This document shows, piece after piece, positions 24,237 to 46,779 of a stretch of 64,000 nucleotides of DNA. The stretch's first letter is position 1; every line of letters starts with the position of its first letter. The DNA is taken from the NCBI RefSeq assembly GCF_023734135.1, contig NZ_AP025730.1:3534001-3598000 (forward strand). Direction: 5' to 3'. The position numbers were made by a program, and so were the translations under genes. The DNA comes from Sphaerotilus microaerophilus. Lineage in GTDB: Bacteria > Pseudomonadota > Gammaproteobacteria > Burkholderiales > Burkholderiaceae_C. The notes under the pieces are model-generated. The model was not told the DNA's origin. It saw only the letters and a program-made list of their open reading frames with translations, and did no database searches.

Positions 24237-24252
24237 TGGAACGTGGATTGCG
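24237..24252 (+). promoter_or_regulatory. Sigma-54 (RpoN) -24/-12 promoter of the cassette
   Basis: TGGAACGTGGATTGCG matches TGGCACG-N4-TTGCW with the invariant GG and GC at the correct spacing; only position 4 and the last base differ. The predicted start is near 24262, about 40 nt before the first ATG at 24303. A sigma-54 activator gene ends the same cassette. Confidence 0.7.
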
Positions 24253-24302
24253 TAATAGCACCGTTAGGTGAGCCGGTGCGCCGCCTGGCGAGAGGAGACG
24301 AC

Positions 24303-26375
24303 ATGCTGACGATCGAGGAAGGCAATCTGGCAACCCGCCGCCCAGTGCGTGCACTGGCCTCCGGCGTGCCGCGCATCACACCCATCCACGACCCCGTGGA
24401 CAAACGGCACTGCGACCTCAGCTTCAGCATCGACACCGGTGGCCGTCAGAGCTTTCGCGTCTTGATCACGCGTGACCGAGCCCTGTTCTCTCCCTCGCAG
24501 GCAGGGGCACGCAATGCGTCGAACTTCTATGACAGCCAGCGTGATGGGCTGCTACACGACGATGGGCCACCCTGCTTTTTCCTCGTGCCCCGCAGCGTAC
24601 TGCACGCAATGCTCCCGGCGCCACGGCTGTACTACACCGTCATCGCCTATGACGACAGCAACGGCGCCCGCGCCGTTTACGGCCACCCGCCGGAGAAGTT
24701 GGCGACCGAGGCACCCTCGGTGGCACTGGCCAGCGATTTGGCCGGCAGCCTGTCGCTGATGTTCGGAACGCCGGTGACACGGTTGTTGCAGGTCAGCGCA
24801 ATCCAGTCGCTGAACCTGGCCGAGGAAGAAGTCGGCGAGGACCACGAGACCAGTCTGCCCGAGTCCATCGGACTCATGGTCGATGACGATGGGGCCTACG
24901 ACCAATTCAATGCAGCCGACAACTACGAAAGCGATAACAACGACAACGTCTACCAGCAAGCTGCCGCGCTCGATGCAGACGGGGAAAGCGACGGTGTCGA
25001 TGATGGTTACGGTGACGGCCAGGACCTCGCGCATATCTATGCAAACAACGATGTGTGGCGCGAGCCTGTGCTGGAAGGCAGCGAAGCTGCGGCATTCGCG
25101 GCGCCTGCGCCCGAGGCCGACTTGGGCGACATCTGGGGCGGTGGAACGACCGCAGGCGAAGACGAATACGACGACGGATTCGGCACCTCCGAGCCGCCAG
25201 CCCAGGCCTATCAGGAACAGGGCGAGGATGTCGAGCCCGCTGCCCCGGCGCAGGCCTCTGACGCTTGCCGCATGTGCAGTTACGGCGACGACGCGGCTCA
25301 AGCCTTCGATGCCCCGGCAGGCGATCCTCTGCCCGAGATGCTGCCGGACGAGGAAGCAGACGGTGTCCACCCTGCGCAAGCGGGACATGACGACAACGCC
25401 ATTGAGTTGGAATCGGCTCAGAACCTGCCCTATGACGACTCCTATGGCGTCGATTACTCCGACGAACAGAGCCAACTGCAGGCGGCGCCGGGAGCCATGC
25501 GCGTGCCCTTCGACATCGAGGCCTGCAAGGCCATCCTGGCGCGCATCGCGCCCTATGAATCGGGCGGCGATGGCTTCGCGCGCACACTGGAAGACGCCGA
25601 GTTTGCCGGTCGCTTTGGAACCGGCCATCCGGCCCACCAGCGCTACCACCTCGGCTTGACCTTTGGCGCCTTCCCCTTCGTACAGGAGCAGGGGACGCTG
25701 GGACAGTTGCTGGCTCTCATGCGCGAGCGCGACCGATCCACCTTCGATGCGACCTTCCCAGAAGCCGACAAGCTGATCGCCGTCACCAATGCGTCGGCCG
25801 GTCCGCGCGCGTGGGAGTCGCCCGACGGATTCTCGCCCAGGCTGCGCCCGGTGGGTGGCAGACTTCTATGGCAGGAACCATGGCTGACGCGCTTCAAGCG
25901 TGCCGCCACTCACCCACCCTTCCAGGGCGCCCAGAATGAGATGGCAGCGCGCCTGTACGTGCAGCCTGTTCTGACGGTGGCTCGGCAGATCGGTCTGGAT
26001 TCCGAACAAGGCCTGACGCTGTTGATCGACCGTGCCGTGCAGTTGGGCGCGGCGGCCGCACTGGCGCTGGTTCTCGACGCGGCCACGCCGGTGGAGACGC
26101 CAGCGCTGCGCCAGCAGGCGCTGGGTGGCCTTGGCCATCAGGACTTGGCCACCTTCCAGCGCGCCGCGAATCTGCCGGTCACGGGTACTTGGGACGTGTC
26201 CACTCATGCGGCACTGATCGCCGCGCTGCGCACCAGCCCGCGCAGCCCGGTGCCGGTGCTTGGTTGCAACGAGATCGTCGCAGCCCTGCTGCGTCACGCT
26301 CAGGGCATGCCCTGGGCCGAACGCATGGCGCGGCTGCGCGACGCCAGTCCGGCCACGCGACTGTTCCAGCTCTGA
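24303..26375 (+). CDS. Multidomain lysozyme-like protein with acidic linker and PG-binding-like C-terminus
   Basis: 690 aa; AGGAGA 4 nt before ATG 24303 (longer frame not used). Residues 1-150 are a beta-rich domain of unknown type. Residues about 185-400 form a long acidic, Tyr/Asp/Glu-rich low-complexity linker. From about 408 comes a lysozyme-superfamily-like (GH46-like) domain with APYESGGDGF (Glu419 as candidate catalytic acid) and HLGLTFGAFPFVQ. Near 620-645, LATFQRAANLPVTGTWDVST resembles PG_binding_1. No signal peptide. First gene after the sigma-54 promoter, so probably the most strongly expressed product. Peptidoglycan cleavage is inferred. Confidence 0.6.
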   Translation: MLTIEEGNLATRRPVRALASGVPRITPIHDPVDKRHCDLSFSIDTGGRQSFRVLITRDRALFSPSQAGARNASNFYDSQRDGLLHDDGPPCFFLVPRSVLHAMLPAPRLYYTVIAYDDSNGARAVYGHPPEKLATEAPSVALASDLAGSLSLMFGTPVTRLLQVSAIQSLNLAEEEVGEDHETSLPESIGLMVDDDGAYDQFNAADNYESDNNDNVYQQAAALDADGESDGVDDGYGDGQDLAHIYANNDVWREPVLEGSEAAAFAAPAPEADLGDIWGGGTTAGEDEYDDGFGTSEPPAQAYQEQGEDVEPAAPAQASDACRMCSYGDDAAQAFDAPAGDPLPEMLPDEEADGVHPAQAGHDDNAIELESAQNLPYDDSYGVDYSDEQSQLQAAPGAMRVPFDIEACKAILARIAPYESGGDGFARTLEDAEFAGRFGTGHPAHQRYHLGLTFGAFPFVQEQGTLGQLLALMRERDRSTFDATFPEADKLIAVTNASAGPRAWESPDGFSPRLRPVGGRLLWQEPWLTRFKRAATHPPFQGAQNEMAARLYVQPVLTVARQIGLDSEQGLTLLIDRAVQLGAAAALALVLDAATPVETPALRQQALGGLGHQDLATFQRAANLPVTGTWDVSTHAALIAALRTSPRSPVPVLGCNEIVAALLRHAQGMPWAERMARLRDASPATRLFQL

Positions 26376-26391
26376 CTGCGGAATTGCCGCC

Positions 26392-27660
26392 GTGCGAGCC
26401 GAACTGTCCTCCACCGTCCCGCTTGGCGAAGGCCATGAGGTGGCAGCTGTGCGCCAATTGGTCCAGGTGCTGCAGAAGGCCCCAGCCTACCGCGCGCTCA
26501 ACAACGAGGCGCGGCATGAGTTCGACCGTTCGCTGGGCAGCATCCAGCAGGTGCTGGGTATGCCGCCCTTGGCGCACCAGATGGCGCCCGATCTGCGCTC
26601 GCAGCTGTCGCCAGGCGGCGCTTCGACTCCTGCCACCGCCCCAACGCCTGCAAGCAGCGGCGCCATCAACCCGGGCACTGCATCTCCCCCTGCACAGGCT
26701 GTCCAGGGCACAGGCCCGGTGGGCCGGGTAGGAGAGGTCGCTCGCGCCACGCTCAACGCCATCGATTTCCCGAGTTTCGTCGCCTCGCTCATCCAGGGCA
26801 CTTTCCAGGCCATTGTCGATGCGTCGATCCAGCAGATGGAGGCCTACGCCGAGTTGCTGAAGAATGTGGCCGGCACTGTCGACAGGTTCATGGGCGACAA
26901 CGTGTCGGACGGCATGGCCAAGGACTACCTTGCCGACCAATACAGCGGGGTGCTCGGCCGCGACACACGCGGGGGTACGGCCAAACTGGTGGTCAACCCG
27001 AACGCGGGCGCCCTTCCCAGCTTCTTCAAGGATCTGGGATTCGAGAGCGCTGACCAACTGAACGAGCAGAGCCTCAACGAGGTGGTGGTGCCGGCCACAC
27101 GGCGCCAAATGGCCGAACGGCGCCAACAGACGCTTGCGACGATGGTGCTGATGGGCATCAACCGCGTGATCGTCAAGGACGGCGAGATCAGCGCCAAGCT
27201 GATGTTCCACATCGACGCCACCGAGTCGACCAATATCAAGTTCGATCAAAACAAGGTCACCAGCGGGAACATGAGCGGCACTGCCGGCCGCAGCCCGTTC
27301 GGCGCCACCAGCGTCATGGTCAATACGACCAGCTTGAACGCTCAGAGCGCCATCAACGTGCGCGCCGACCTCACCGGCCAAGTGACTGTGCGTTTTGCCA
27401 GCGAGACATTTCCGCTGGAGCGCTTTGCCGATTCGGCCGCGATTCAGCTGATCAACAACAACGCCAAAGTGCCCGCGCTTTCGGCCCCTGCGCCCGGCAC
27501 GCTGCCGCCGGGCCAGCCGGTGGTGCCGGGATCCCCGCTGCCCACCCTTCCTTCACCGACGCTGCCGGCCCCATCTGCGCCGGCGGTGACCGCGCCGAGG
27601 CCGGTGCCGGCGCAAGCCCTGGCCTTTGACCCCTGGGCACCGGTCGGGAGCGTGTCGTGA
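26392..27660 (+). CDS. Paralogous family protein P1
   Basis: 422 aa from GTG 26392, 16 bp after the previous stop. It defines the cassette's repeated family. An N-terminal helical unit (about 15-58) and Pro/Ala linker precede the core helix at about 124-170 (IDFPSFVASLIQGTFQAIVD, then IQQMEAYAELLKN). Next come a helix-strand junction (RRQQTLATMVLMGINRVIV), a variable beta region and a conserved strand ending ASETFPLERF. The Pro-rich tail ends FDPWAPVGSVS. The helix-plus-beta layout resembles DUF2589, a weak similarity judged by eye. The next gene starts within its stop codon. Confidence 0.65.
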   Translation: MRAELSSTVPLGEGHEVAAVRQLVQVLQKAPAYRALNNEARHEFDRSLGSIQQVLGMPPLAHQMAPDLRSQLSPGGASTPATAPTPASSGAINPGTASPPAQAVQGTGPVGRVGEVARATLNAIDFPSFVASLIQGTFQAIVDASIQQMEAYAELLKNVAGTVDRFMGDNVSDGMAKDYLADQYSGVLGRDTRGGTAKLVVNPNAGALPSFFKDLGFESADQLNEQSLNEVVVPATRRQMAERRQQTLATMVLMGINRVIVKDGEISAKLMFHIDATESTNIKFDQNKVTSGNMSGTAGRSPFGATSVMVNTTSLNAQSAINVRADLTGQVTVRFASETFPLERFADSAAIQLINNNAKVPALSAPAPGTLPPGQPVVPGSPLPTLPSPTLPAPSAPAVTAPRPVPAQALAFDPWAPVGSVS

Positions 27661-27890
27661 GAACCGAGCTGGCAGACACCCTGCTGCAGCTGTTCGAGGG
27701 GATCGGCACGGCGCCGGGCTCGGGCTTGGTGGTTACCGAGGTCGAGGTCGTCATGCCGCTCGAAGTGAGTGCCGCGACGCGCGGCGAGGAACTCGTGTTT
27801 CTGGCGCAGCCGCCGCATTCGCGCTGGGAGGCGGGCTTCCTCCCGCCGGTGCAGCGGCTGCACCTGAAGCTGGCCCTGGAGGAGCGATGA
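27657..27890 (+). CDS. Small trypco2-like beta protein
   Basis: 77 aa, GTG start overlapping the P1 stop as GTGA. A short helix (LADTLLQLFEGIG) is followed by three or four strands (LVVTEVEVVMPLEVS, EELVFLA, QRLHLKLALEE). This helix-then-sheet plan matches trypsin-co-occurring domains (trypco), small domains found beside proteases in predicted bacterial conflict systems. A subtilase gene lies 1 kb downstream. The match is by pattern only. Confidence 0.5.
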   Translation: MRTELADTLLQLFEGIGTAPGSGLVVTEVEVVMPLEVSAATRGEELVFLAQPPHSRWEAGFLPPVQRLHLKLALEER

Positions 27891-27891
27891 C

Positions 27892-28887
27892 TTGGCCGAT
27901 CGCCACAACCCTGCCGGAACCGGATTCATGGTCGAGGAGTTCATCACCTCGATCACGACCCAGCTCGACCGCGTGCAGGACGCGCTGCGCATCAAGGCCG
28001 TCAACCGCCCGCTGACATACGCCCTCAAGGAACTGCATCTGGAGCTCAAGGTGTTCGTTGACATGGATCCCCAAGGACAGGTGTTGCTGCGCGCCGCCGG
28101 CCCCAATGAGGCGGGCGCCAGCACCCTGGCCATGGACTTCACGACCATCACCAAGCCCATGATCGAGGAGAACACCATCTCGCTGGCCGCCAGCCGCTCG
28201 GCCCCGCTGGACAGCCTTGGCCTGAAGCCAGAAGAGCAGATGAAGCTGGAGCGACTGGGCGTGACCAACCTTGCGCAGCTGGAACGGCTGAAGGGCTCCA
28301 CTGGCGTCAACACCGTGGCCCGCATGGCCGACGTGCCCATCGAACGTCTGCGCCGCGCGCTGCAGGCCGGGCAGCCACGGCTTGGCGGCGTGGTGGCACC
28401 GCGGCCGCCCGTGGCCATGCCTGCGCCCGTGCAGGTACCACCGCCCCCGCCGCGCCAGCCTCAGCCGCGGCCGGCGCCCGTGTTCACACCTGGACCCCGA
28501 AGGCTGCCGGTGCACTCACTGCGACCGCTGAGCTTGGACGACGAGCCCCCCTTCCCTGAAGGCCAGGCCGCCTTACCCGACCCGGCCGCGGTGCTGGAAG
28601 TGCATCCCTCCACCCGCAGTCTGGCGCTTGGCGGAAGCCACCTGCTGCACGAGGGCTATCCGCCCGAGGTGCGCCTGAATGGCGAGGCGCTGGAGATCGA
28701 GGAGCTGGACGACGATCGCCTGGTGGTGCGCCTGCCTGAGCATTTCGAGCCGGGTGCGCTGGAGGTGCGGCTGGGCGACCTGGAGCCGCACTGCTACGCG
28801 CTGGTTCACCCCTTCAGCGCCGAAGCCTACGCCGAACCCTACGTCGAAACCACCGACCCCTGGGCACCCGCTGGAGGCCGCGCATGA
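27892..28887 (+). CDS. Trypco-like / helix-hairpin-helix / IPT-like modular protein
   Basis: 331 aa if TTG 27892 is the start, which has GGAGGAG 5 nt upstream; the ATG at 27928 has no ribosome-binding site. Residues about 12-85 form a trypco-like helix and strands (VEEFITSITTQLDRVQDALR, LHLELKVFVDMD). Residues about 105-165 look like a helix-hairpin-helix (SLGLKPEEQMKLERLGVTNL). A Pro-rich linker leads to an IPT/TIG-like beta domain at about 235-315. It ends DPWAPAGGRA, sharing the DPWAP-x-G tail with P1. The stop overlaps the protease start as ATGA. Confidence 0.55.
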   Translation: MADRHNPAGTGFMVEEFITSITTQLDRVQDALRIKAVNRPLTYALKELHLELKVFVDMDPQGQVLLRAAGPNEAGASTLAMDFTTITKPMIEENTISLAASRSAPLDSLGLKPEEQMKLERLGVTNLAQLERLKGSTGVNTVARMADVPIERLRRALQAGQPRLGGVVAPRPPVAMPAPVQVPPPPPRQPQPRPAPVFTPGPRRLPVHSLRPLSLDDEPPFPEGQAALPDPAAVLEVHPSTRSLALGGSHLLHEGYPPEVRLNGEALEIEELDDDRLVVRLPEHFEPGALEVRLGDLEPHCYALVHPFSAEAYAEPYVETTDPWAPAGGRA

Positions 28888-30278
28888 AGCGCGAAGGCTT
28901 CCTCACACTCACGCTGCGCAGCGGAGTGGCCGCGGCCGCGGTGCCGGCGCACCTGGATTGCCTGTCCGGCGCCGGACGTCCCAGCCCGCGGCTGGATGGC
29001 GGGCGCATCGACGCGCTGCTGGCCCGCGCTGCCGACGGCGCGCGCTTCCGCCGCATCTTCCACGCCCGCCGTTCGCTGGGCCGGCCGGGCGAGCAGCACG
29101 TGGGCTTTGACGACACCGAAGAGGCGCTGGGCCTGTCGCGCAGCTACCAGGTGGAACTGGGCCGCAGCGACGCCGCCGCCTACGTACGCGAAGCGCTGCG
29201 CGATCTGGGCCCCGTGGAACACTGCGAAGAGCAGCAGTTGGCCTACGCCCCACTCGATGCCCATGCCCTTGCCGGTGCCGATGCGGGCCACCCACCGCGC
29301 CGCCGCGTCACACAGGCCCAGGCCCGCGCCGCGCAGCAGCGCATCCGTGCGCCCGAAGCGCTGGCGCTGGAGCCGGGCGACCCGACCGTGACCGTGGCCA
29401 TCGTCGATACCGGCGTTGTGGTGGGCCACCCCGAACTGCAGCGCCGCTGCATGGCCGGTTACGACACCGTCGACCTGGGACTGGGCCGCCTCAACGACAA
29501 CATGCGGCTGGTGGGCGACTCGCGCGGCTGGGACTACAACCCCTACGACGAGGTGGGCCACGGCTGCCTGGTGGCCGGCATCGTCGGCGCGCGCGGCTTC
29601 CGGCTGCCGCCCGGCCTGGCCGGCCTGGCGATGCTGCTGCCCATCCGCGTGCTGGCGGCGGCGCGGCGCGAGGCCGGCGGCGCGCGCCTGGTGGGCGTTG
29701 GCGCGCTGCCGGATATCGACGCCGGCATCAAGGTCGCCGTCGACCTGGGTGCCACGGTCATCAACATGAGCCTGGGCTCGCCGCGCGACGAGGCCGACCC
29801 ACACGCGGCGCTGCCGCACCAGGCTGTAGCGCGCTACGCGCTGGCGCGCGGTTGCGTGCTGGTGGCCGCGGCCGGCAACAGCGGCCGACGTGAGCAGTTC
29901 TACCCGGCCGCCCTGCCAGAAGTGATCGGGGTCGGGTCGGTCGACGCGCTCGGCCAGCGCTCGCGCTTTTCCACCTGGGGGCCCCAGATCGCGCTGTGCG
30001 CGCCGGGCGAGGGTATCGTGGGTGTTGGCCGCCACGGTTACCAGGCCAGCTCTGGCACTTCGTTTGCGGCGCCCTTCGTGGCCGGCGCTGCGGCGCTGAT
30101 GATCGCACGCGCGCGCCGGCTGGGTCGTGCGATCGACGCTGCCGGCGTGCGCCGGCTGCTGTGTTCATCCGCCCAACGCCTGCCGGGACCAGCCGAGGAA
30201 GTCGGCGCCGGCCTGCTCGATTGCCGCGCGGCGCTGCAAGCGTTGGACGCAGCCCCCTCAAGCCCTGCGAGGAGCTAA
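28884..30278 (+). CDS. Subtilisin-like S8 serine protease
   Basis: 464 aa. The full catalytic set is present: Asp175 in VAIVDTGV, His226 in VGHGCLVAGI, oxyanion Asn332 in AAAGNSG, and Ser393 in SSGTSFAAPFVAGAAAL. About 160 residues precede the catalytic domain, and no signal peptide or propeptide-type secretion signal is seen, so it is probably cytoplasmic or carried inside an assembly. It is translationally coupled to the trypco/IPT-like gene. Trypco-type domains are known to accompany proteases, which supports a functional unit. A maturation role for P proteins or hydrolases is possible but inferred. Confidence 0.85.
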   Translation: MKREGFLTLTLRSGVAAAAVPAHLDCLSGAGRPSPRLDGGRIDALLARAADGARFRRIFHARRSLGRPGEQHVGFDDTEEALGLSRSYQVELGRSDAAAYVREALRDLGPVEHCEEQQLAYAPLDAHALAGADAGHPPRRRVTQAQARAAQQRIRAPEALALEPGDPTVTVAIVDTGVVVGHPELQRRCMAGYDTVDLGLGRLNDNMRLVGDSRGWDYNPYDEVGHGCLVAGIVGARGFRLPPGLAGLAMLLPIRVLAAARREAGGARLVGVGALPDIDAGIKVAVDLGATVINMSLGSPRDEADPHAALPHQAVARYALARGCVLVAAAGNSGRREQFYPAALPEVIGVGSVDALGQRSRFSTWGPQIALCAPGEGIVGVGRHGYQASSGTSFAAPFVAGAAALMIARARRLGRAIDAAGVRRLLCSSAQRLPGPAEEVGAGLLDCRAALQALDAAPSSPARS

Positions 30279-30281
30279 TCC

Positions 30282-32276
30282 ATGGCCGCCCGAAAATCGA
30301 ACCCATCGCCGCGCCGTCCGCCCGATCCGTGGATCGAACTGCTGCTGCTGGTGCTCGACGGAAGCGCGCTGGAAGCCGATCTGGAAGGCGCCAAGCACCA
30401 GCTGCAGCAGACCCTGGAGACCGATCAAGAGAGCGCGCCCGAAGTGCTGCGCGAGGGGCTGGACACCCGCGCCTCGACGCTCCGCGCTGGCGGCCGCGCG
30501 CCACCGTCAGCTGCCTACCGGCTGATGCTCGTGCGCCTGCTGCGCCGCGCGCTGCAGGACCCAAGCATCGGCGCCACTCCTGAACAGCTCATACCACTCG
30601 AGCAGCACTTGGAGCGGCTCGACGCCAACTCCCTCCGGCCGATTGTGGGGCCGGCCTTGCGCCTCGTCATCGGCAAGCCACGCGATGGGGACTCTCGCTT
30701 TCTCAATCAGTGGCTGGTCCAGTTCATCAAGGAGACTTCCATGGCCGACTTCCATTTCGAGATCGATGTCAGTTCCGTGCCGATCCTGCGAGACGACGCG
30801 GTCAAGAACAATTACATCAATCAAGTTGAGGGTCTGCTCGACGAAATGTCGCGCTCTGTACCGGGAACCGTCAAGACGAGGAAGGAGCCGTGGGCTGCCG
30901 CCGTCATTGGCATGGTCATCCTGGACGGTGAGGTGGATCCCGCGTCGAGTGGACTGCAGGGCGCTGTGACGCGAGCCTGGCACGAGTCCATCCATAAGGT
31001 CGTCGATACAAACAAGAAGGAACGACCGCTCTCGGAAGTCTACGAGTACATCGCAAAAAAACTGCCTTCCCTCAACGGGGGCATTCAGAGCCTCTCGGTG
31101 CAAGAGTTTGCCTTTGTCGCGCGCGAGGTTATCGCCGGCGCCGAAGCCAACCCTTTCGGCCATGGCAGCTTCGACTCTGCCATTCGCATAGCGCTCGACC
31201 GCTACGTTTCCACCCGCGCCACCGGCGACTCGCTGAGCCTGCCGCCGGGCTGCCTGCCCGGCGGCACACAGAACGCGGGAGGCGACGCCGACCTGAACTC
31301 CGACAACATCCGCGTCTGCGGTCTGACCTATTCGCTGGCACTGCTGGAAAAGACGCTGGTACTGCGCGTGGCCGACCGCATCGCCGAGTTGTTCATGAAC
31401 GGTTTGCTGCCCTTCGGCCGCGATGCCGCAGGCAAGGCCATCGACGACTACTACTGGGAAACAGAGGACCGGCTGACGGAATCGCAGCGGCGCTCGCAGT
31501 ACGCGCGCATGTTGGGCATGCCAGGCGGCGAGGTGTCGAAGGAGGTGGCACCGAACAAGTCATTTGAGCAGCTGTTCCTGCGTTTCATCGCCAGTGTCTC
31601 CGAGTTCACCCGCCAGCGCGAGGTGGACCGCATGTTCAACAACCGCACCTCGCAACTTTCGATGACGGGCGAACAGGTCCGCAAGAGCGCCTTCGAACTG
31701 GCCAAGAACGCCTCGCTCTACGCCTGGGGCGGCAGCTTCTACGTGGCCACGCGCATCAACAAGCACCTGGACCGCGCCATCGGCATCCTCAACCAGCCGC
31801 AGGTGCTGAAGACCTACGCGGCCTCGAACCACTGGCAAGTGATTGAGCGCGTCGCGCAGCAGGACTTCGGCGGCGCGCCAAACTGGGTGAAGTACAGCAC
31901 CATGGCGCAGTCGGCCAATGCGCTGTTCGGTATCCTCGCCAACAAGACGGCGGCAATCTCCGACACCAGCAGCAGCAGCCCCTTCCTGTTCGACCCCAGC
32001 TTCGGCGGCGAAGGTGGTAGCGGCGACTTGGACGAGACCACCACCAACCTACTGCTGCGCAGCGTGCAGTCGTGGCTGGCCGTCAACGGCGTGCGCGACG
32101 ACCAGGTCAAGCAGTACGCGCAGCCTGTGGAGATGAACACCGCGCCCAGCCTGCCAGGCCTGCCCGGCGCTGGCGACAGCTTAGGTCTGGACGTGCTGAA
32201 CAAGCTCAAGCAGCTGACTGCCAACGGCACCCCCAGTCCCGACCAGCTGCAGCAGCTGCTGGCCCAGCTGCACTGA
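30282..32276 (+). CDS. Unknown large helical cassette protein (possible two-start gene)
   Basis: 664 aa, GAGGAGC before ATG 30282, 3 bp after the protease stop. Residues 1-150 are helical with leucine-rich stretches (YRLMLVRLLRRALQDPSIGA). An in-frame ATG at residue 154 (30741) has its own AAGGAGA 5 nt upstream and begins MADFHFEIDVSSVPILRDDA, which looks like a natural N-terminus. A shorter 511-aa product may therefore also be made, or the gene may be a fusion. The rest is mostly helical with a Ser/Gly-rich patch near residue 580. No known domain is recognised. Confidence 0.7.
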   Translation: MAARKSNPSPRRPPDPWIELLLLVLDGSALEADLEGAKHQLQQTLETDQESAPEVLREGLDTRASTLRAGGRAPPSAAYRLMLVRLLRRALQDPSIGATPEQLIPLEQHLERLDANSLRPIVGPALRLVIGKPRDGDSRFLNQWLVQFIKETSMADFHFEIDVSSVPILRDDAVKNNYINQVEGLLDEMSRSVPGTVKTRKEPWAAAVIGMVILDGEVDPASSGLQGAVTRAWHESIHKVVDTNKKERPLSEVYEYIAKKLPSLNGGIQSLSVQEFAFVAREVIAGAEANPFGHGSFDSAIRIALDRYVSTRATGDSLSLPPGCLPGGTQNAGGDADLNSDNIRVCGLTYSLALLEKTLVLRVADRIAELFMNGLLPFGRDAAGKAIDDYYWETEDRLTESQRRSQYARMLGMPGGEVSKEVAPNKSFEQLFLRFIASVSEFTRQREVDRMFNNRTSQLSMTGEQVRKSAFELAKNASLYAWGGSFYVATRINKHLDRAIGILNQPQVLKTYAASNHWQVIERVAQQDFGGAPNWVKYSTMAQSANALFGILANKTAAISDTSSSSPFLFDPSFGGEGGSGDLDETTTNLLLRSVQSWLAVNGVRDDQVKQYAQPVEMNTAPSLPGLPGAGDSLGLDVLNKLKQLTANGTPSPDQLQQLLAQLH

Positions 32277-32294: not shown

Positions 32295-33386
32295 ATGCAA
32301 GCCAGAGACACCCTGGCCCAACGCGCGCGAAGCCTGCTCGCGCAGTCGGCCCGACGGCTGGGCACTGCAGATCCGCTGGAAGACGTGGGCGCCGCGCTGG
32401 ACGAACAGCTCGACGTGCCCTACGGCGAACTCACCGACGATACGCCGCTGTCGACCCAGTACTCCGAACAGACGCCCGAGCACTTGAACTTTGTGATGCG
32501 CGCCACCGGCCGCGGCGTGACCGGTGCTGACCGCATTGAAAGTTCGAGCCAGGCGATGGCGCAGGTTGTCGACCGCCACTTCGGTCGTGCCGCGCGGCGC
32601 TGGCTGGACAACCAGCTGGAGCCCGTGCGTACCCAGGAGATGAGCCGCACCGCGTCGTGGGGAGCCGCCTTCGGCAGCGCCTTCGACCGCAACGGCCTGG
32701 CCGAGTCCTACGTGCACTGCGAGTGGGGGCCGAGCCTGGTGGATGCCCTGCCGGGCCCGCTGCACCGCCTGGTTCGCACCGTGGTGGACAACATGCCGGG
32801 CCTGCATCCGGTGATCCTGTCAGTGCGCTGCGGGCGCTCGGCCGGGGCGCAGCAGCTGTCCTTTGAATCGGAGCGGCCACTGGCACTGGCCGCGCTGCAG
32901 CCGCTGATGGATCAGCTGGGCCTGGGCCACCGTCACGCCGGCCTGATGAGCGCCGTGGCCTTCATCCTGGGCGCGCGCTTCGTGCTGCCGGCTGAGGCCG
33001 CAATGCTCACGCTGCGGCCGCTGCGTCAGGGCGTGGAAATGCGCCTGGACGTAAGCCTGGACGCCATTCCCGACCTGCCCTCGCAGCTGATGGCCCTGAC
33101 ACGCTTGCAGATGACCGAACGACCACGCAGCGTGCAGGGCATGGACCGCTGGCTGATGGCGCTGACGCCGGACGGCTACCCCGGCCCCGGCACGGTGTCG
33201 GTGCTGTCGGTGTGGGTGCGGCCCGACCTGCCGGCGCGCGTGGCGCTGTACCTGCGGCCGGCCTCGCTGGACCCGCGCCTGGAAGGCCTGCGCCAGCCGG
33301 CCGCGCCGCGGCCTGCCGCGCCGCCCGTGCGCCAGCCCGAGCCCGTGGCCGGGCAGGCGCTGTGGTCCTCGTCGGCCTGGGCCTGA
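32295..33386 (+). CDS. Unknown cassette protein
   Basis: 363 aa from ATG 32295, 18 bp after the previous stop. An N-terminal helical region is followed by a mixed alpha/beta body (ADRIESSSQAMAQVVDRHFG; LRPLRQGVEMRLDVSLDAIP) and a Pro/Ala-rich tail ending SSSAWA. The same (A/S)WA end occurs in the gene at 35957. No signal peptide or membrane segment. The family is not recognised. Confidence 0.65.
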   Translation: MQARDTLAQRARSLLAQSARRLGTADPLEDVGAALDEQLDVPYGELTDDTPLSTQYSEQTPEHLNFVMRATGRGVTGADRIESSSQAMAQVVDRHFGRAARRWLDNQLEPVRTQEMSRTASWGAAFGSAFDRNGLAESYVHCEWGPSLVDALPGPLHRLVRTVVDNMPGLHPVILSVRCGRSAGAQQLSFESERPLALAALQPLMDQLGLGHRHAGLMSAVAFILGARFVLPAEAAMLTLRPLRQGVEMRLDVSLDAIPDLPSQLMALTRLQMTERPRSVQGMDRWLMALTPDGYPGPGTVSVLSVWVRPDLPARVALYLRPASLDPRLEGLRQPAAPRPAAPPVRQPEPVAGQALWSSSAWA

Positions 33387-33421: not shown

Positions 33422-34696
33422 ATGACACCTGCCGCCGCCCCGAACGACCGCCTGCTCGGCGACATCCGGTCGCGCGTGCGGCAGGCGCTAACGCGCAGCA
33501 GCGCCTTCAATGCCCTGCCCGCCGACAAGCGCACCGAGATTGCCCACAACACGGTGCGCGCCTTCCACTACATCCTGGGCGGTGCCGACGGCCAGTCGCG
33601 CCCGGGCTCGGTGGAACTGGGCGGCAACGTCGGCGGCTATGCGCCGCTGGCCGAAGCGCAGGCCAGCCCGGCCAAGCCCGCGGCACCGCAGCGCACCATC
33701 GTGGCCAACCAGCCGCCGCCGCTGGGCGAGGCCGCTCGCCGCGGCGGCGACGCCATGGCCGACCTGATCCAGGAGGTCGACTTCCCCTCCTTCGTCGGCG
33801 GCCTTGTCGACGGCGTCTTCAACTCCATCGTCACCAGCTCCATCAAGCAGATGGAGGCATATGCCGAGCTGGTGAAGAACGTGAGCAAGTCGGTCGACCA
33901 GTACATGAAGGACAACGTCAGCGAGAACAACGCGCGCGACTACCTGGTGCAGAAGTACCCCGAGCACCTGGAGATGGACCTCTCGGGCGAGTCGCCCAAG
34001 CTCAAGCCGCGCGAGGGCGCCGACGAATCCAACATGCCCGACTTCTTCGCTGACCTGGGCCTGAAGTCGCCGGTGGCCAGCCTCGACCAGGACACCGCCG
34101 AGCAGCAGCTGATGCCCGCCGCGCGCCAGCGCATCGCGATGGACCGCCAGCAGATGCTGGCCACCATGGTGATGATGGGCGTGAACCGGCTGGTGGTGAC
34201 CAACGGCACCATCGAGGCCTCGTGCCTGTTCAAGCTGGACACGCGCGACACGCGCGTCCGCGACCGCACGCGCACCGCCGGCGGCTCCTGGGGCAGCAGC
34301 TCGCACGACGAATGGGGCGGCAAGGGCGATCACACCTACGAGGCCGAGCGCAAGGAGAACGACTGGATCAAGAGCGGCAAGTACTCGGGCAACTCCAGCT
34401 GGTACAGCGGCCACACGCGCGACAGCAACGCGCAGTTCAGCGTGTCCACCGTCGACACCAACAAGAACGAGGAGGAGATCAAGCTGCACGCCGAGCTCAC
34501 GGGCAAGGTCAAGCTCAACTTCAAGAGCGACTACTTCCCGATGGAACGCATGATCGACGCGCTGCAGATCAACCAGATCCGCGACAAGGTGCCCGCCACC
34601 GCGCCCGCTCCGGTGGCGGCCGTTCCCGCCGCGCCGCCGCTGCCGCCGATGCCGCCGCTGCCCTCCGTGCCTGGCGTCACCGTGCCGGCACGCTGA
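33422..34696 (+). CDS. Paralogous family protein P2
   Basis: 424 aa. The N-terminal unit (residues about 8-55) ends in AFHYILGGADGQ, shared almost exactly with P3. The core helix begins near residue 120 (VDFPSFVGGLVDGVFNSIVT) and continues IKQMEAYAELVKNV and QYMKDNVSENNARDYL. The middle motif is RQQMLATMVMMGVNRLVVTN. The variable beta insert is Ser/Gly/Tyr-rich (about residues 285-345). The conserved strand is KLNFKSDYFPMERM, followed by a Pro-rich tail. P2 and P3 look like a recent tandem duplication. Confidence 0.7.
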   Translation: MTPAAAPNDRLLGDIRSRVRQALTRSSAFNALPADKRTEIAHNTVRAFHYILGGADGQSRPGSVELGGNVGGYAPLAEAQASPAKPAAPQRTIVANQPPPLGEAARRGGDAMADLIQEVDFPSFVGGLVDGVFNSIVTSSIKQMEAYAELVKNVSKSVDQYMKDNVSENNARDYLVQKYPEHLEMDLSGESPKLKPREGADESNMPDFFADLGLKSPVASLDQDTAEQQLMPAARQRIAMDRQQMLATMVMMGVNRLVVTNGTIEASCLFKLDTRDTRVRDRTRTAGGSWGSSSHDEWGGKGDHTYEAERKENDWIKSGKYSGNSSWYSGHTRDSNAQFSVSTVDTNKNEEEIKLHAELTGKVKLNFKSDYFPMERMIDALQINQIRDKVPATAPAPVAAVPAAPPLPPMPPLPSVPGVTVPAR

Positions 34697-35940: not shown

Positions 35941-35956
35941 AGACCGGAGACGGACC

Positions 35957-36907: not shown

Positions 36908-38478
36908 GCATCGCCCTGCTTGCCCGTCCGCTGCGCCCAGCGCCACCGCTGCCGGCACTCGCCACGCCCCCATCGGCCGCGGGGCGAACCGTGGCCCTGT
37001 CCGGCGCCTTCGCCACGCCGCCCGACCCGCAGGGCATACGCCCCACGCCGGCCACCACTGCGCTGGTGCGCACCCAGGTGCGCAGCTTGCTGGAAGCTAC
37101 GCCGTCGTACCATCAGCTGGCCGACGAAGAGCGCTGCGCGTTGGAAGACAAGCTCGCGCGCGTGGCCGCCTATGCCGCCGAGTGCCTGCGCGACATCTAC
37201 TGGCAGTCCGAACAGATTGGCCAGACGCCGGTGCTGAAGGAAACCCGCGTCAGTCGCGCCGTCGCGCCCGAAGAGCAGGCGGCACCCGCGCAATCGCCTC
37301 GGCGAGCGCAGCTGGCGAAGGCCCAGGCCAACGACTTCGCACCGCGCGCAGCCAGCCAGATCGGCAACGTCACGCAGCAGACCCTGCGCGCCATCGCCTT
37401 CCCCACTTTTGTGGCCGATCTGATTCGCGGCACCTTCGACGCTATCTTCCAGACCACCGTCAAGCAGATGGAGGCCTTCTCCCAACTGCTGTCCAACGTC
37501 TCCAAGACCGTCGACCAGTTCATGGACGACAACGTCACCGACGAGCAGGCCCACGGCTGGCTGGCGCAGACCTACCCGCGCCACCTCACCATGCGCGGCG
37601 GCAAGGCCGTGCCGCGCGACGGCGCAGACCAGCTGCAGCCGCCCAACTTCGAAACCGAGCTGCACACCAGCGCCGGCCTGGACGAATCGTCGATCGAGCA
37701 GACGCTGCTGCCGGCTGCGCGCCGGCGCCTGGCCGAGACGCGGCTGCAGATGCTGTCGACCATGGTCCTGATGGGCATCAACCGCATCGTCGTCACCGCC
37801 GGAAAGATCCGCGCCACCATGGCCTTCCACATTGACACAAGCGACAGCGCCTTCGAGCGCAACGCCGAGGACGTCGACGCCCGCGTGGCCATGCGCGGGC
37901 ACTACAACGCGCTGGTCTGGGGCGTAGAGGCCTCGGCCTCGCTGGCCTACGTGAGCAGCAGGCGCGCCGGCAGCGATGCCGAGATCAACACCTCGACCGA
38001 CCTGACCGGCGAGGTGGAGCTGCATTTCAAGAGCGACTACTTTCCGGTCGAGCGCTTCGCGAATGCCGGCGCGCTGCGCACGATCTCGGGCAACACGGCG
38101 GTGCCCGAGGCCAACCCGCCGCCGACCTTCGCGCCGCCGCGGGTGGGCGCGCCGCCGCCGGTGGAGGGGGCCGCCGCACCGCGTGCACGCCGCGTGCGCG
38201 AGGCGCCGCCGACGATGACGCCGGTCGGCGCGCCGCTGCCCGAGGCGCGGCTGCCCACCGAGACGCCGATCCAGCGCGGCGCGCTCGACCCCGGGGCCAA
38301 CAACCCGGTGCCTGCGCCGACCTCCGGAAACGCCGCCGGCAACACGGTCGGCAACGCCGAAACCAACACGGCGGGCACCGAGCCCGACGCCGAACCCGAC
38401 GCAGAGCCGGCCGCCGAGGGGCAATCGCTCGGCGCCGCGCGCTCCATCGAGAAGGGACTGCCATGGACCGTCCGCTGA
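36904..38478 (+). CDS. Paralogous family protein P4
   Basis: 524 aa, the longest family member. A Pro-rich start leads into the N-terminal unit (TQVRSLLEATPSYHQLADEE) and the GQTPVL motif shared with P5. The core helix starts near residue 164 (IAFPTFVADLIRGTFDAIFQ), then KQMEAFSQLLSNVSKTVDQF. The middle motif is QMLSTMVLMGINRIVVTAGK and the conserved strand ELHFKSDYFPVERF. A tail of about 130 residues is rich in Pro, Ala, Glu, Asn and Thr. The 3' end overlaps P5 by 16 bp. Confidence 0.7.
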   Translation: MSIALLARPLRPAPPLPALATPPSAAGRTVALSGAFATPPDPQGIRPTPATTALVRTQVRSLLEATPSYHQLADEERCALEDKLARVAAYAAECLRDIYWQSEQIGQTPVLKETRVSRAVAPEEQAAPAQSPRRAQLAKAQANDFAPRAASQIGNVTQQTLRAIAFPTFVADLIRGTFDAIFQTTVKQMEAFSQLLSNVSKTVDQFMDDNVTDEQAHGWLAQTYPRHLTMRGGKAVPRDGADQLQPPNFETELHTSAGLDESSIEQTLLPAARRRLAETRLQMLSTMVLMGINRIVVTAGKIRATMAFHIDTSDSAFERNAEDVDARVAMRGHYNALVWGVEASASLAYVSSRRAGSDAEINTSTDLTGEVELHFKSDYFPVERFANAGALRTISGNTAVPEANPPPTFAPPRVGAPPPVEGAAAPRARRVREAPPTMTPVGAPLPEARLPTETPIQRGALDPGANNPVPAPTSGNAAGNTVGNAETNTAGTEPDAEPDAEPAAEGQSLGAARSIEKGLPWTVR

Positions 38479-44330: not shown

Positions 44331-44340
44331 GGAGAACGCC

Positions 44341-45528
44341 ATGACCCTCCAGTTCACATCTTCGAGCGCGCTCGTCTTCGGTGAATCGCCCTGGCCGCAC
44401 CGCGCGGCCGCGGCGCAGGCGCAGCAGGCCGAAGGCTTCAGCTCACCGCCCCGCAGGGCCGACACCTCCGAATTGACGCAGGCCGAAGTCGACCACCTGG
44501 CCGGCGTGCGCTTCAGGACCGCGGCAGACATCGAGAGCTACTTCCAGCGCAGCGGCGAGGCCGGCTTCATCGACTGGTACAACGCCGGCCTTGCCCACAG
44601 CGCACCATTCAGCGCACGCGGCGCCATCACCACCAGCCGCACTGTACGCAACCGCTTCACCACCTTCTGGAACCAAGTGCGCACGGCTTTCGACCGCGAC
44701 GAGATCAACGCGCTGGACTTCGCTGCCTTCACGGCGATCTCCATCAACGAGACCGGCGGCAACCTCTGGGCTCACCCGGAAAGCAGCGGCCGCGGCGGTG
44801 GTGGACGCCGAGATGCGCTGGGTCGCCACCCAGGCTTGGCCTACTTCTTTGACCGCATCGAACTGCGGCCCGGTCACTTCAAGGCCAGCTACAACCACCT
44901 CAGCGGCGGACGTACTGCCGGATCGCTGTTCGATGACGCCGACTACCTCGCTGCCCACGGCACGCTGGCCGGTGCCGACCGCCTGGCGAGCCACGGCGGC
45001 GATTTCGGTGGCGCCTGGAACGGCAGCTTCTACCCGCAGAATGAGTTCAGCAGTGTCGAAGACCCAGCCGTCAACGGCTTCATCATGCAGGCCGACTTCT
45101 ACAAGTTCCGCGGCCGAGGGGTAATCCAGACCACCGGTCGGTCTTCGTACAAGCGCGCAGTCAACTTCATCAAGACCTACCGCGGCACCAACACCGTGCT
45201 GGCTGATGCCGGTCAACGCTGGGCCCTGATGTCGGCCGATGTGGCCTGCACCCGCAGCCGCAACGAAGACTGGGATCACATCTTCGAACAGCCGGAAATG
45301 CTGGCCAAAGGCCTATCGCTGCACGCCGGCACACGCAACGACTATCGCCGCATGAGCACCACGGTCGCCACGTTGCTGCATGTGCCGCGGGCATCGGAAG
45401 GCAACGCACGCGGCCTGACTGGCTCCATCTATGCCATGGGCCGGCGCATCAGCGGCAGCCGCAGCTATGGCGCCGGCCTCTACCGCCAACGCGTGCTGGC
45501 GCTGCTGCACGGTTTCTTGACGGTTTGA
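44341..45528 (+). CDS. GH19/lysozyme-like muramidase or chitinase-type hydrolase
   Basis: 395 aa. After SALVFG (residues 9-14) and a disordered Ala-rich stretch, the catalytic domain (about 100-380) has a lysozyme-type acid, Glu137 in SINETGGNL. It also has the GH19 substrate-cleft signature FRGRGVIQTTGRSSYKRAV (about 256-274). GH19 folds act on chitin or peptidoglycan glycan strands. No signal peptide. It follows the four-module hydrolase by 10 bp, giving the cassette enzymes against both glycan and peptide parts of the wall. Confidence 0.75.
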   Translation: MTLQFTSSSALVFGESPWPHRAAAAQAQQAEGFSSPPRRADTSELTQAEVDHLAGVRFRTAADIESYFQRSGEAGFIDWYNAGLAHSAPFSARGAITTSRTVRNRFTTFWNQVRTAFDRDEINALDFAAFTAISINETGGNLWAHPESSGRGGGGRRDALGRHPGLAYFFDRIELRPGHFKASYNHLSGGRTAGSLFDDADYLAAHGTLAGADRLASHGGDFGGAWNGSFYPQNEFSSVEDPAVNGFIMQADFYKFRGRGVIQTTGRSSYKRAVNFIKTYRGTNTVLADAGQRWALMSADVACTRSRNEDWDHIFEQPEMLAKGLSLHAGTRNDYRRMSTTVATLLHVPRASEGNARGLTGSIYAMGRRISGSRSYGAGLYRQRVLALLHGFLTV

Positions 45529-45538
45529 GCAGATCGAG

Positions 45539-45835
45539 ATGCACCGCCAGCGCGTACTGCACCGACGAAAGCTGCCACAACCCGGCAGATCGCCGGACCA
45601 CGCCAGCGGGCTGGCCCGCTACGCCAACCGGTTCGAGGTGGGATACAACGCCTTCGAGTTTCTGTTCAACTTCGCTCAAGACTACGACGATGGCGGCTTC
45701 GCGCATTCGCGTATCGTCACCGTGCCGGCCTATGCCAAGGTGTTCCTCGGCGTGCTCCATCGCAGCATCGTCGACTACGAGGCGCAATTCGGTCAGATCC
45801 CGCTGCCGCCTGGGGTACCCGGAGTTGACTCCTGA
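45539..45835 (+). CDS. DUF3467 protein
   Basis: 98 aa. The DUF3467 pattern is visible: RYANRFEVGYNAFEFLFNFA, IVTVPAYAKVFLGVLHRSIV and DYEAQFGQIP. The family is small and uncharacterised, and is expected to be dimeric and cytoplasmic. ATG 45539 lies 10 bp after the GH19 gene. It is the last plus-strand gene of the cassette and overlaps the 3' end of the sigma-54 activator by 43 bp. Confidence 0.75.
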   Translation: MHRQRVLHRRKLPQPGRSPDHASGLARYANRFEVGYNAFEFLFNFAQDYDDGGFAHSRIVTVPAYAKVFLGVLHRSIVDYEAQFGQIPLPPGVPGVDS

Positions 45836-46779
45836 GCCGCGCATGAGATCTCGTGCTTGGCCATCTTGCGGTAAAGCGTCACCCGCGACCACTTGAGGTC
45901 ACGCGCCGCGGCGGTCTTGTTCCAGTGCGTAGCCGACAAGGTGTCGAGGATGCGACGGCGCTCTTGTCGCACCAATTCGTCGCCCCAGCCCGTCGTCGTA
46001 CGTTCCGTCAGATAGCTCGGAAGCGCGTGCGGCGTGATGGCACCTTCAGGCGGGTCGATGAAGATCGACTCAATCACGTTGCGCAGCTCGCGCACATTCC
46101 CGGGCCAGTGGTGGGAGAGCAGGCAGGCCACCGCATCATGGTCGAACCAACCGACGTTGGCGCCCTCGGGCGTTCGGCGAAGTGGCGCCATGAAGTGGGC
46201 AGCCAGTTCGAGGATGTCGTCGCGACGCTGGCGCAGCGGCGGCAACTGAACACGGGCCACGTTGAGCCGATAGAACAGGTCGTAACGAAAACGTCGCTCG
46301 CGCAGCAGCTCGTCCAACGGTTGATGGGTGGCTGCAACGATGCGCAGATCGATCTTGCGCGTACGCAGGCTGCCCAGCGGCGTCACCTCGCGATGCTCAA
46401 TAGCACGTAACAACTTGGCCTGGGAGGCCAGTGGCAGGTCGCCGAGCTCATCTAGAAACAGAGTGCCGCCATCGGCCGCGGCAAAGCGGCCAGCATAGGA
46501 ACGACCTGCCCCGGTGAAGGCACCCCGCTCGTAGCCAAAGAGTTCGCTCTCGATCAAGCTCTCAGGCAAGGCAGCACAGTTGAGGCTGACGAAGGGCCCC
46601 TCAGCGCGTGCACTGTGAGCATGGACCAAGCGCGCGACTTCATCCTTGCCGGTTCCCGTCTCTCCTACGATCAGCAGTGGGCACTGATGTCGAGCGGCCT
46701 TGCAGGCGAAAGCCAGGGCTGAAGTAAAGCTGACGTTATGTCCCACCAAACCATGAGGCAGGTTCGAATGGAAGTGCAT
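45793..46779 (-). CDS. Sigma-54-dependent transcriptional activator without sensor domain
   Basis: 328 aa; GGGAGG 6 nt before ATG 46779. The AAA+ domain has Walker A GETGTGKD (39-46), the sigma-54-contact loop GAFTGA (86-91) and GGTLFLDELGDL as Walker B. A Fis-type helix-turn-helix sits at the C-terminus (NKTAAARDLKWSRVTLYRKM). There is no N-terminal receiver, GAF or PAS domain, so activity must be set by another protein or by expression, as for PspF. It converges on the DUF3467 gene. The only convincing -24/-12 promoter found is upstream of the cassette's first gene. Confidence 0.88.
   Translation of the reverse strand: MHFHSNLPHGLVGHNVSFTSALAFACKAARHQCPLLIVGETGTGKDEVARLVHAHSARAEGPFVSLNCAALPESLIESELFGYERGAFTGAGRSYAGRFAAADGGTLFLDELGDLPLASQAKLLRAIEHREVTPLGSLRTRKIDLRIVAATHQPLDELLRERRFRYDLFYRLNVARVQLPPLRQRRDDILELAAHFMAPLRRTPEGANVGWFDHDAVACLLSHHWPGNVRELRNVIESIFIDPPEGAITPHALPSYLTERTTTGWGDELVRQERRRILDTLSATHWNKTAAARDLKWSRVTLYRKMAKHEISCAAQESTPGTPGGSGI

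What the first reader, a model, noticed from the sequence alone, without database searches (positions are those of the whole stretch)
24237..46779. A 22.5 kb sigma-54-controlled cassette that looks like an undescribed multi-protein system carrying peptidoglycan hydrolases
The sequence shows fifteen co-directional, mostly overlapping genes: five paralogues, a cytoplasmic-type subtilase with adjacent trypco-like proteins, three unknown large proteins, three multidomain wall hydrolases without signal peptides, a DUF3467 protein and a convergent sigma-54 activator. I recognise no known phage tail, T6SS, eCIS or toxin-antitoxin core. Wall-lytic enzymes lacking export signals imply they are loaded into a particle, released by lysis, or exported by the P-family assembly. 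All mechanistic steps are inference.
Basis: partly seen in the sequence, partly recalled or inferred. Interest (0 to 1): 0.95.

Follow-up and report, generated by a model that had tools for sequence, protein, structure and literature searches.

The report
Conserved undescribed wall-hydrolase-carrying protein machine
A block of fifteen same-direction genes plus its own regulator, whose core recurs in the same order in distantly related bacteria, encodes an undescribed set of proteins predicted to assemble into a machine that carries and deploys wall- and protein-cutting enzymes; it matters because its main structural proteins match no family we could find described.

Summary
The cassette is real and not a one-off ICE passenger. 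Its core recurs in near-constant order in 61 loci outside the window (Beta-, Alpha-, Gamma- and Deltaproteobacteria, Actinobacteria, Acidobacteria, Cyanobacteria, Gemmatimonadetes): [effector]-P1-small-Trypco2-subtilase-H5-G6-P2(-P3)-H5'-P4(-P5)-[effectors]. New: (1) the gene before P1 encodes a hydrolase with a shared N-terminal domain (ND) in 33 of 36 distinct loci where it is visible, joined to variable peptidase or wall-hydrolase domains; (2) P paralogues fall into clades by gene position; (3) "unknown" G6 (32295-33386) is predicted with high confidence to be an aromatic-prenyltransferase (DMATS/ABBA) barrel; likely active-site residues are kept in 38 of 52 aligned copies and lost in the window's subtype, which pairs P4 with P5; (4) a -24/-12 sigma-54 box precedes the operon in 16 of 17 loci with an activator and 1 of 13 without, and four Roseobacter-group cassettes are followed directly by their own sigma-54 factor gene. 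P, H5 and ND match no named family. Best mechanism: a soluble hetero-oligomer that loads polymorphic hydrolases, matured by the subtilase; assembly, loading and route are inferred. Main rival: an intracellular conflict/suicide system.

The parts
24237..24252 (+). sigma-54 (-24/-12) box, 66 bp before the g01 start codon
   Evidence: TGGAACGTGGATTGCG, 10 of 12 fixed positions. Sites of this kind are not enriched in the window (25 found, 42 expected); support comes from position and from relatives (16 of 17 vs 1 of 13)
24303..26375 (+). g01, ND effector: shared N-terminal domain, acidic linker with YDDGFG motif, weak GH46-like/PG-binding C-terminus
26260..27660 (+). g02, P1 (ORF; start codon uncertain, probably after 26375)
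   Evidence: P-family HMM; P1 clade of 41 tips from 41 sources incl. the window, support 0.996
27657..27890 (+). g02b, 77-aa small trypco-like protein (GTG start)
   Evidence: small genes in the same place in L009:10348 and L010:20439
27928..28887 (+). g03, Trypco2-like protein (T2)
   Evidence: T2 in 49 of 61 loci; Pfam Trypco2 in 22 of 38 family members at E<=1, not in this copy
28884..30278 (+). g04, S8 subtilase, no signal peptide recognised, catalytic D/H/S motifs present
   Evidence: S8 in 50 of 61 loci
30282..32276 (+). g05, H5 family (no known domain)
   Evidence: 107 H5-family copies (both paralogues) in 56 of 61 loci
32295..33386 (+). g06, G6: predicted aromatic prenyltransferase (DMATS/ABBA) barrel; likely active-site residues substituted in this copy
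33422..34696 (+). g07, P2
   Evidence: type-B P2/P3 clade
34711..35940 (+). g08, P3 (53% identical to P2; paired with it in the window and three close relatives)
35867..36907 (+). g09, H5' (short paralogue of g05; likely start 35957)
36904..38478 (+). g10, P4
38463..39752 (+). g11, P5
39792..44330 (+). g12, 1512-aa effector, C-terminal Peptidase_M15_4, N-terminal SALVFG tag
44341..45528 (+). g13, endolysin-like effector with the same N-terminal SALVFG tag
45539..45835 (+). g14, DUF3467 protein
   Evidence: Pfam DUF3467 3.6e-7, 30.6 bits, cut-off 25
45793..46809 (-). g15, sigma-54 activator, AAA+ and Fis HTH, no N-terminal sensor domain recognised (PspF-like); alternative ATG at 46779

Best explanation
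The cassette encodes a conserved, undescribed multi-protein system in which paralogous P subunits together with H5/H5' and the prenyltransferase-fold protein G6 are predicted to form a soluble assembly that is likely loaded with wall- and protein-cutting effectors. Shown: near-constant gene order across phyla, P paralogues in clades by gene position, an ND domain on most first-gene effectors joined to interchangeable hydrolase modules, a second short tag (SALVFG) on the unrelated effectors g12 and g13, and a sigma-54 box that tracks the activator. Inferred: a stress-triggered, PspF-like activator switches on the operon; the P proteins, H5, H5' and G6 co-assemble in the cytoplasm; ND (and SALVFG) dock the effectors; the subtilase with its Trypco2-like partner matures the assembly or frees the effector domains; because no signal peptide was recognised and the core has no clear transmembrane segment, the loaded assembly would leave on cell lysis or cross the envelope by its own means and attack the walls and proteins of other cells. 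In the majority subtype G6 would in addition prenylate a cassette protein, which could give these soluble proteins a membrane anchor; in the window's subtype G6 is likely only structural.
For: Core and order in 61 loci: P 215 copies in 61, H5 family 107 in 56, G6 54 in 53, S8 51 in 50, T2 49 in 49. P tree (206 of 221 P hits): P1 41 tips/41 sources (0.996, window included), P2 40/40 (0.907), P3 44 tips/40 loci (0.948), P4 39/39 (0.999); in the window's subtype the P2/P3 slot is a clade of 16 tips/12 sources (0.997) and P4/P5 one of 25 tips/14 sources (0.999). ND directly upstream of P1 in 30 of 30 fetched regions that show that gene (29 distinct), and in the window, L009, L025, L069: 33 of 36 distinct loci, the misses being L036, L037, L063. 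Pfam content of 30 ND proteins: C70 16, Amidase_2 9, C92 7, Trypsin_2 6, DUF3238 6, Trypsin 5, C39_2 4, GH46 4, CHAP 1, NlpC 1. YDDGFG-type linker motif, pattern drawn up after seeing it, in 26 of 29 ND proteins, 0.03 expected, 0 in 585 core-family entries (H5 and H5' lists overlap). SALVFG tag on g12 and g13, otherwise unrelated. Maximal 19-residue hydropathy >=1.8 in 0 of 215 P, 0 of 54 G6, 0 of 49 T2, 1 of 51 S8, 7 of 107 H5. Sigma-54 box 16 of 17 with activator vs 1 of 13 without, Fisher 1.9e-6; sigma-54 factor genes 58-62 bp after the last P gene in L056, L057, L060, L062. H5-G6 fusion in Cellulomonas humilata.
Against: No step of assembly, loading, export or killing was tested. The P model is low confidence and matches nothing. 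No sheath, tube, spike, baseplate, secretin or motor ATPase was recognised in the cassette, nor a holin. Trypco2 is known from intracellular conflict systems (PMC7159879, PMC10907252, passages), which favours the rival. ND is not universal: the first genes of L036, L037 and L063 lack it, two of them being GH46-like/PG-binding proteins (weak matches), and the Tolypothrix cassette has a different order. 3 of 29 ND proteins lack the YDDGFG motif. At the laxer hydropathy limit of 1.6, 5 of 215 P, 11 of 54 G6, 14 of 51 S8 and 18 of 107 H5 pass, and g01 has one stretch of 1.82. SALVFG is confined to the window's close relatives: the 8 closest of 113 g13 entries, the window's own included (7 by the strict pattern); the g12/g13 homologues of L015 lack it. 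The deeper nodes of the P tree are weakly supported (0.1 and 0.576).
Confidence: 0.45

Rival explanations
1. An intracellular conflict or suicide system: on stress or phage attack the subtilase/Trypco2 module activates the peptidase and wall-hydrolase effectors against the producing cell, P acting as a scaffold or membrane-permeabilising oligomer.
For: Trypco2 homology and the published link of Trypco domains to peptidase effectors in conflict systems (PMC7159879, PMC10907252, passages); peptidase-rich effectors; mobile location in the window ICE and on plasmids; rare distribution: G6 in 1 of 398 genomes sampled in the phylum, the window's own; PspF-like activator; no immunity-like gene was noted beside the effectors (no dedicated search).
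Against: No NTPase sensor, STAND, MoxR or vWA gene recognised in the cassette; in PADLOC only a generic subtilase match, a weak IetS match and the activator's AAA part; many effector domains act on peptidoglycan, which is not in the cytoplasm; several conserved structural paralogues are more than a sensor-effector switch needs.
Confidence: 0.3
2. A protein-prenylation and processing pathway: G6 prenylates P or the effector and the subtilase trims it, in the way cyanobactin pathways use a prenyltransferase plus subtilases, giving lipidated, envelope-attached hydrolases.
For: G6 has a predicted DMATS/ABBA fold and keeps likely diphosphate-binding residues in 38 of 52 aligned copies; the subtilase also matches the PatA/PatG cyanobactin protease model, below cut-off.
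Against: The window's own subtype has lost these residues in 13 of 13 aligned members yet keeps the rest of the core, so prenylation cannot be essential to it; the subtilase scores higher against the mycosin model, and its best PDB matches are AK.1 protease and thermitase; no precursor peptide was noted.
Confidence: 0.12
3. A distant member of a known contractile injection, phage-tail or T6SS class that sequence comparison fails to recognise.
For: Soluble paralogous structural proteins and N-terminally addressed effectors resemble eCIS and T6SS cargo logic (recalled); P models with low confidence, so remote homology is not excluded.
Against: No Pfam, NCBIfam or PHROGs hit to a tail, sheath or baseplate family above noise; no P2 relative in 50,697 phage records and none confirmed in IMG/VR (patterns of a single protein, so close relatives only).
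Confidence: 0.08
4. Unrelated accessory genes that happen to sit together in an ICE hotspot.
For: In the window the cassette lies between a TraD/DUF4400 block and a TraK/TraB/TraV/TraC/TraU block.
Against: The same order recurs in loci of many phyla, including a Burkholderia megaplasmid typed as non-mobilizable; TraU is absent from 8 of 9 carrier genomes tested.
Confidence: 0.01

Closest known systems
Aromatic prenyltransferases of the DMATS/ABBA fold (CymD, PriB, DMATS1)
   Different: 14% identity to CymD in that alignment; sits in a multi-protein cassette; likely active-site residues lost in the window's subtype
Trypco2-containing conflict systems (Kaur et al. 2020, PMC7159879; passages seen)
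   Same: Trypco2-like protein adjacent to a serine peptidase gene; peptidase effectors
   Different: Partner is a subtilase, not a trypsin; no vWA/MoxR/STAND NTPase recognised; nothing like P, H5, G6 or ND in the passages seen
Polymorphic-effector delivery systems (eCIS, T6SS; recalled)
   Same: Shared N-terminal address domain joined to interchangeable toxic enzyme domains, encoded with conserved soluble structural paralogues
   Different: No recognisable sheath, tube, spike, baseplate or AAA+ recycler; no immunity genes noted
Cyanobactin pathways (PatA/PatG subtilases with PatF-type prenyltransferase; recalled, PMC4663559 seen in listing only)
   Same: Subtilase plus ABBA-type prenyltransferase fold in one operon
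   Different: No precursor peptide noted; large structural and hydrolase proteins instead
PspF-type sigma-54 activators (recalled)
   Same: AAA+ and Fis HTH without recognised N-terminal sensor; -24/-12 box before the operon
   Different: Lies beside this cassette in place of psp genes

Membership tests
DMATS/ABBA aromatic prenyltransferase (G6) | Barrel of alpha-beta-beta-alpha repeats over the full length | tested here: met
DMATS/ABBA aromatic prenyltransferase (G6) | Catalytic Glu and diphosphate-binding Arg/Lys/Tyr residues (positions assigned from recalled motifs, not by superposition) | tested here: not met
   The window copy reads E N Y H Q W Y at seven positions; 38 of 52 aligned members keep R65, K/R139 and Y/F141, 14 do not. 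So: met in the majority of the family, not in the window copy
Trypco2 | Pfam PF19631 match | tested here: inconclusive
   22 of 38 family members hit at E<=1, best 2e-4; the window's T2 does not; no match on the Tolypothrix plasmid
VMAP/MoxR ternary conflict system | vWA, MoxR ATPase and VMAP-type proteins | tested here: not met
   None in the Pfam scans of the cassette
Contractile injection system / phage tail / T6SS | Sheath, tube, spike or baseplate gene recognisable by family models | tested here: not met
   Pfam, NCBIfam, PHROGs: none above noise; NCBIfam and PHROGs were given 10 cassette proteins each
Contractile injection system / phage tail / T6SS | Structural homology of P to a tube, sheath or connector | tested here: inconclusive
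Known anti-phage defence systems | PADLOC system genes | tested here: not met
   Of 10 proteins given, only the S8 protein (generic subtilase 1.2e-18, IetS 3.9e-4) and the activator (RtcR-like models, best 4.7e-95, AAA/HTH part) hit
Sigma-54 regulated operon | -24/-12 box before the first gene plus nearby activator | tested here: met
   Box 16 of 17 with activator, 1 of 13 without; sigma-54 factor genes next to four cassettes. Transcription itself not testable here
Cyanobactin pathway | PatA/PatG equivalog and precursor peptide | tested here: not met
   PatA/PatG model 95 bits against a cut-off of 421; no precursor-like ORF noted (no dedicated search)

The most novel reading that the evidence does not exclude
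A new class of bacterial effector-deploying nanomachine, carried by eight phylum- or class-level lineages including Gram-positives: a hetero-oligomer of four to five P paralogues with H5/H5' and a repurposed aromatic prenyltransferase as subunit, its wall-hydrolase and peptidase cargo addressed mainly by an interchangeable N-terminal ND domain. It exists in two subtypes, type A with a potentially active prenyltransferase and separate P2, P3 and P4, and type B (the window's) in which the prenyltransferase is degenerate and the terminal P is a P4/P5 pair with extra genes downstream.
Probability: 0.35. Interest if true: 0.95.

Novelty: categorically new. Interest (0 to 1): 0.87.

Why it matters
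A syntenic core of mostly unnamed families, present in distant phyla but rare within the one sampled, points to a class of bacterial machinery not yet described. The ND domain gives a handle for collecting its effectors, the sigma-54 box gives a way to switch it on, and the prenyltransferase-fold subunit raises the testable possibility that bacteria lipidate such soluble assemblies.

Tried and rejected
P fold: AF2 on P5 with 78 sequences gave pLDDT 66.7; Foldseek and VIA gave no convincing match; sequence profiles of P and H5 gave no PDB match below E 0.5. The G6 profile's best PDB hit, STENOFOLIA at E 0.0057, covers residues 77-153 only and was rejected as chance against the full-length fold match to prenyltransferases. 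P4 to Phage_HCP1 (E 0.055), P5 to ASXH (0.0096) and P2 to TraJ (0.0083) are sub-threshold partial hits, rejected.

YDDGFG as a prenylation site was considered and set aside: the motif is equally present in the subtype with degenerate G6 (window, L099, L101, L102). Counting sigma-54 sites over the whole window is uninformative (25 found, 42 expected by chance). In the uniform test L103 misses although a box identical to that of L104 lies near its first gene; in the earlier, less uniform scan L107 missed instead. The activator label was set by hand as convergent for the window, L099, L101 and L102; for L099 the activator lies on another contig of the same genome. L089, the one positive without activator, had only 122 bp upstream. 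My first G6 HMM drew in H5 through the natural H5-G6 fusion in L047; clean HMMs were rebuilt and only their counts are quoted.

The L009 'no ND' row is an overlapping wrong-frame ORF; the annotated gene at 5431 has ND. The draft also called P1-P4 one-per-locus subfamilies everywhere; the window's P2/P3 and P4/P5 belong to separate clades.

Paper searches found nothing on the cassette; of PMC7159879 and PMC10907252 I saw passages only, of all others the search listing. Rows dropped: L096 (same contig number and length as L118) before the counts, though it is one of the 30 regions; L094, L095, L098 and L100 do not show the gene before P1; 206 of 221 P hits entered the tree (211 were 200 residues or longer); 51 of 54 G6 copies plus the window's entered A5; one search kept the best 80 of 82 matches.


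Full report
WHAT IS THERE. The window is part of a 6.06-Mb genome, contig 1. From 24303 to 45835 fifteen genes run in one direction, overlapping or within 40 bp of each other, and end against a convergent sigma-54 activator (45793-46809, minus strand). The cassette lies in a conjugative element: TraI_2 helicase, TraD-type coupling protein and DUF4400 upstream; a lytic transglycosylase, TraK, TrbI/TraB, DsbC, TraV, TraC, S26 and TraU downstream. 24237 is a sigma-54 box, 66 bp before the g01 start codon at 24303.

IT IS A CONSERVED SYSTEM, NOT AN ICE PASSENGER. P5 has 1,384 homologues at E<=0.001 among the candidates scored. P2 has no relative in 50,697 phage records, none confirmed in IMG/VR and matches in 4 plasmid records. 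One of these, the Burkholderia pyrrocinia megaplasmid pBPJTT, typed as non-mobilizable, carries the cassette in the same order with activator and DUF3467 gene in front. A scan of genome contigs with the P profile, capped at the best 80 of 82 matches, gave 59 loci whose record titles name Burkholderiales and other Betaproteobacteria, Alpha-, Gamma- and Deltaproteobacteria, Actinobacteria (Nocardioides, Cellulomonas), Acidobacteria, Cyanobacteria and Gemmatimonadetes. With clean HMMs, in these 59 plus two plasmid loci: P 215 copies in 61 of 61, H5 family 107 in 56, G6 54 in 53, subtilase 51 in 50, T2 49 in 49. The order is nearly constant; the Tolypothrix plasmid cassette is reduced and reordered. 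TraU is absent from 8 of 9 carrier genomes tested. The system is rare: in 398 genomes sampled in the phylum G6 is found only in the window's own, and P there plus one marginal 43-residue hit; in 200 genomes of the family P2 matches 8, the window's own included, two of them marginal.

P SUBUNITS BY POSITION. A tree of 206 P sequences splits by gene position: P1 41 tips from 41 sources (0.996, window included); P2 40 from 40 loci (0.907); P3 44 tips from 40 loci (0.948); P4 39 from 39 (0.999). The window's subtype differs: its P2/P3 slot is a separate clade of 16 tips from 12 sources (0.997), single in most but doubled in the window, L011, L012 and L013, and its P4/P5 form a clade of 25 tips from 14 sources (0.999). 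Deeper nodes are weak (0.1, 0.576). Paralogues kept in fixed positions across phyla are what distinct subunits of one assembly would give; this is inference. The P5 model is confident only at about residues 31-80 and 201-280, mean pLDDT 66.7, and has no structural match.

THE EFFECTOR SIDE. In 30 of 30 fetched regions that show the gene directly before P1, that gene has the same N-terminal domain, ND (L096 and L118 are one cassette, so 29 distinct). With the window, L009, L025 and L069 this makes 33 of 36 distinct loci; L036, L037 and L063 have a first gene without detectable ND, in L036 and L037 with weak GH46-like and PG-binding matches. In the listed N-termini ND mostly begins within about 30 residues of a plausible start, leaving no room for a signal peptide. 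Domain content of 30 ND proteins (29 regions and the window): Peptidase_C70 16, Amidase_2 9, C92 7, Trypsin_2 6, DUF3238 6, Trypsin 5, C39_2 4, GH46-like 4, CHAP 1, NlpC/P60 1. A linker motif of the type YDDGFG, defined after seeing it, occurs in 26 of 29 ND proteins (and in the window's), 0.03 expected from shuffled linkers, and in none of the core-family entries. The downstream effectors g12 and g13 are unrelated except for a short N-terminal tag, SALVFG, also on the g12 homologues of L011-L013 and the g13 homologue of L012 (one further hit, inside an unrelated 224-aa ORF of L053, looks like chance). Of 113 g13 entries the 8 closest, the window's own included, carry ALVFG near the N-terminus (7 by the strict pattern). 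ND and the tag are therefore likely address signals.

REGULATION. The activator has an AAA+ domain and Fis HTH but no recognised N-terminal sensor, like PspF. A -24/-12 box with at least 10 of 12 fixed positions lies within 450 bp before the first operon gene in 16 of 17 loci with the activator and 1 of 13 without (Fisher 1.9e-6; chance per region about 1.6%). The single positive without activator, L089, starts near a contig end. In four Roseobacter-group loci (L056, L057, L060, L062) a gene for a whole sigma-54 factor (core-binding and DNA-binding domains above cut-off) follows the last P gene by 58-62 bp, so some cassettes appear to bring their own sigma-54. Counting sites in the window alone gives no enrichment.

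TRYPCO. Pfam Trypco2 is hit by 22 of 38 members of the T2/small-protein alignment at E<=1 (best 2e-4) and TIG by 7; the window's own T2 is not hit. In published work Trypco domains mark peptidase-based conflict systems (PMC7159879, PMC10907252; passages), which is the main reason to keep the conflict reading alive.

MECHANISM. I commit to a soluble, sigma-54-induced assembly of the P proteins, H5, H5' and G6 that is loaded, mainly through ND, with polymorphic hydrolases and matured by the subtilase/Trypco2 pair, to act on other cells (0.45). Conservation, order, domain architecture, shared N-terminal signals and promoter are shown; assembly, loading, maturation and route are inferred. The rival, an intracellular conflict or suicide system using the same parts, gets 0.3; a prenylation and processing pathway 0.12; a hidden contractile system 0.08; chance neighbours 0.01.

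NOVELTY. No Pfam, NCBIfam, PHROGs or PADLOC model gave a convincing match to the P, H5 or ND parts of the proteins scanned, and paper searches (an open-access library only) found no description. The mechanistic class is not settled; the system as such lies outside every kind that I could test.

Noticed in passing
window 19457-23693 and 46989-58836: Conjugation genes (TraI_2, TraD, DUF4400; SLT, TraK, TraB/TrbI, DsbC, TraV, TraC, S26, TraU) flank the cassette; the insertion point looks like an accessory hotspot of an SXT-like ICE (recalled comparison).
   Followed up: partly
L056:13694-14929, L057:13725-14981, L060:13728-14999, L062:13725-14981: A complete sigma-54 factor gene directly follows the last P gene in four Roseobacter-group cassettes.
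   Followed up: partly
window 59813-60958 (-): Fic/DOC protein with DUF4172 inside the ICE region.
   Followed up: no
window 61077-63365 (-): 762-aa ORF with no Pfam match next to the Fic gene.
   Followed up: no
window 14295-15959 and 16979-18262: HATPase-domain protein and a DUF932 protein upstream of the conjugation genes.
   Followed up: no
L047:5519-8494 (Cellulomonas humilata): Natural fusion of H5 and G6 in one ORF; in the related L064 the two are separate ORFs.
   Followed up: partly
L010 (Tolypothrix sp. PCC 7712 plasmid): Reduced, reordered cyanobacterial cassette: alpha/beta hydrolase, S8, PG-binding protein, H5, one P, 721-aa and 436-aa proteins, small protein, T2.
   Followed up: partly
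L034, L037, L063 first genes: Repeats of the type PEPPSATGQYPDxxW near the N-terminus in a cyanobacterium, an acidobacterium and a gemmatimonad; L037 and L063 are among the loci without ND, so this may be an alternative address motif.
   Followed up: no
g13 homologues P0222, P0203, P0243: g13-type domain occurs in proteins that also carry caspase (PF00656), OmpA (PF00691) or PG-binding (PF01471) domains.
   Followed up: no
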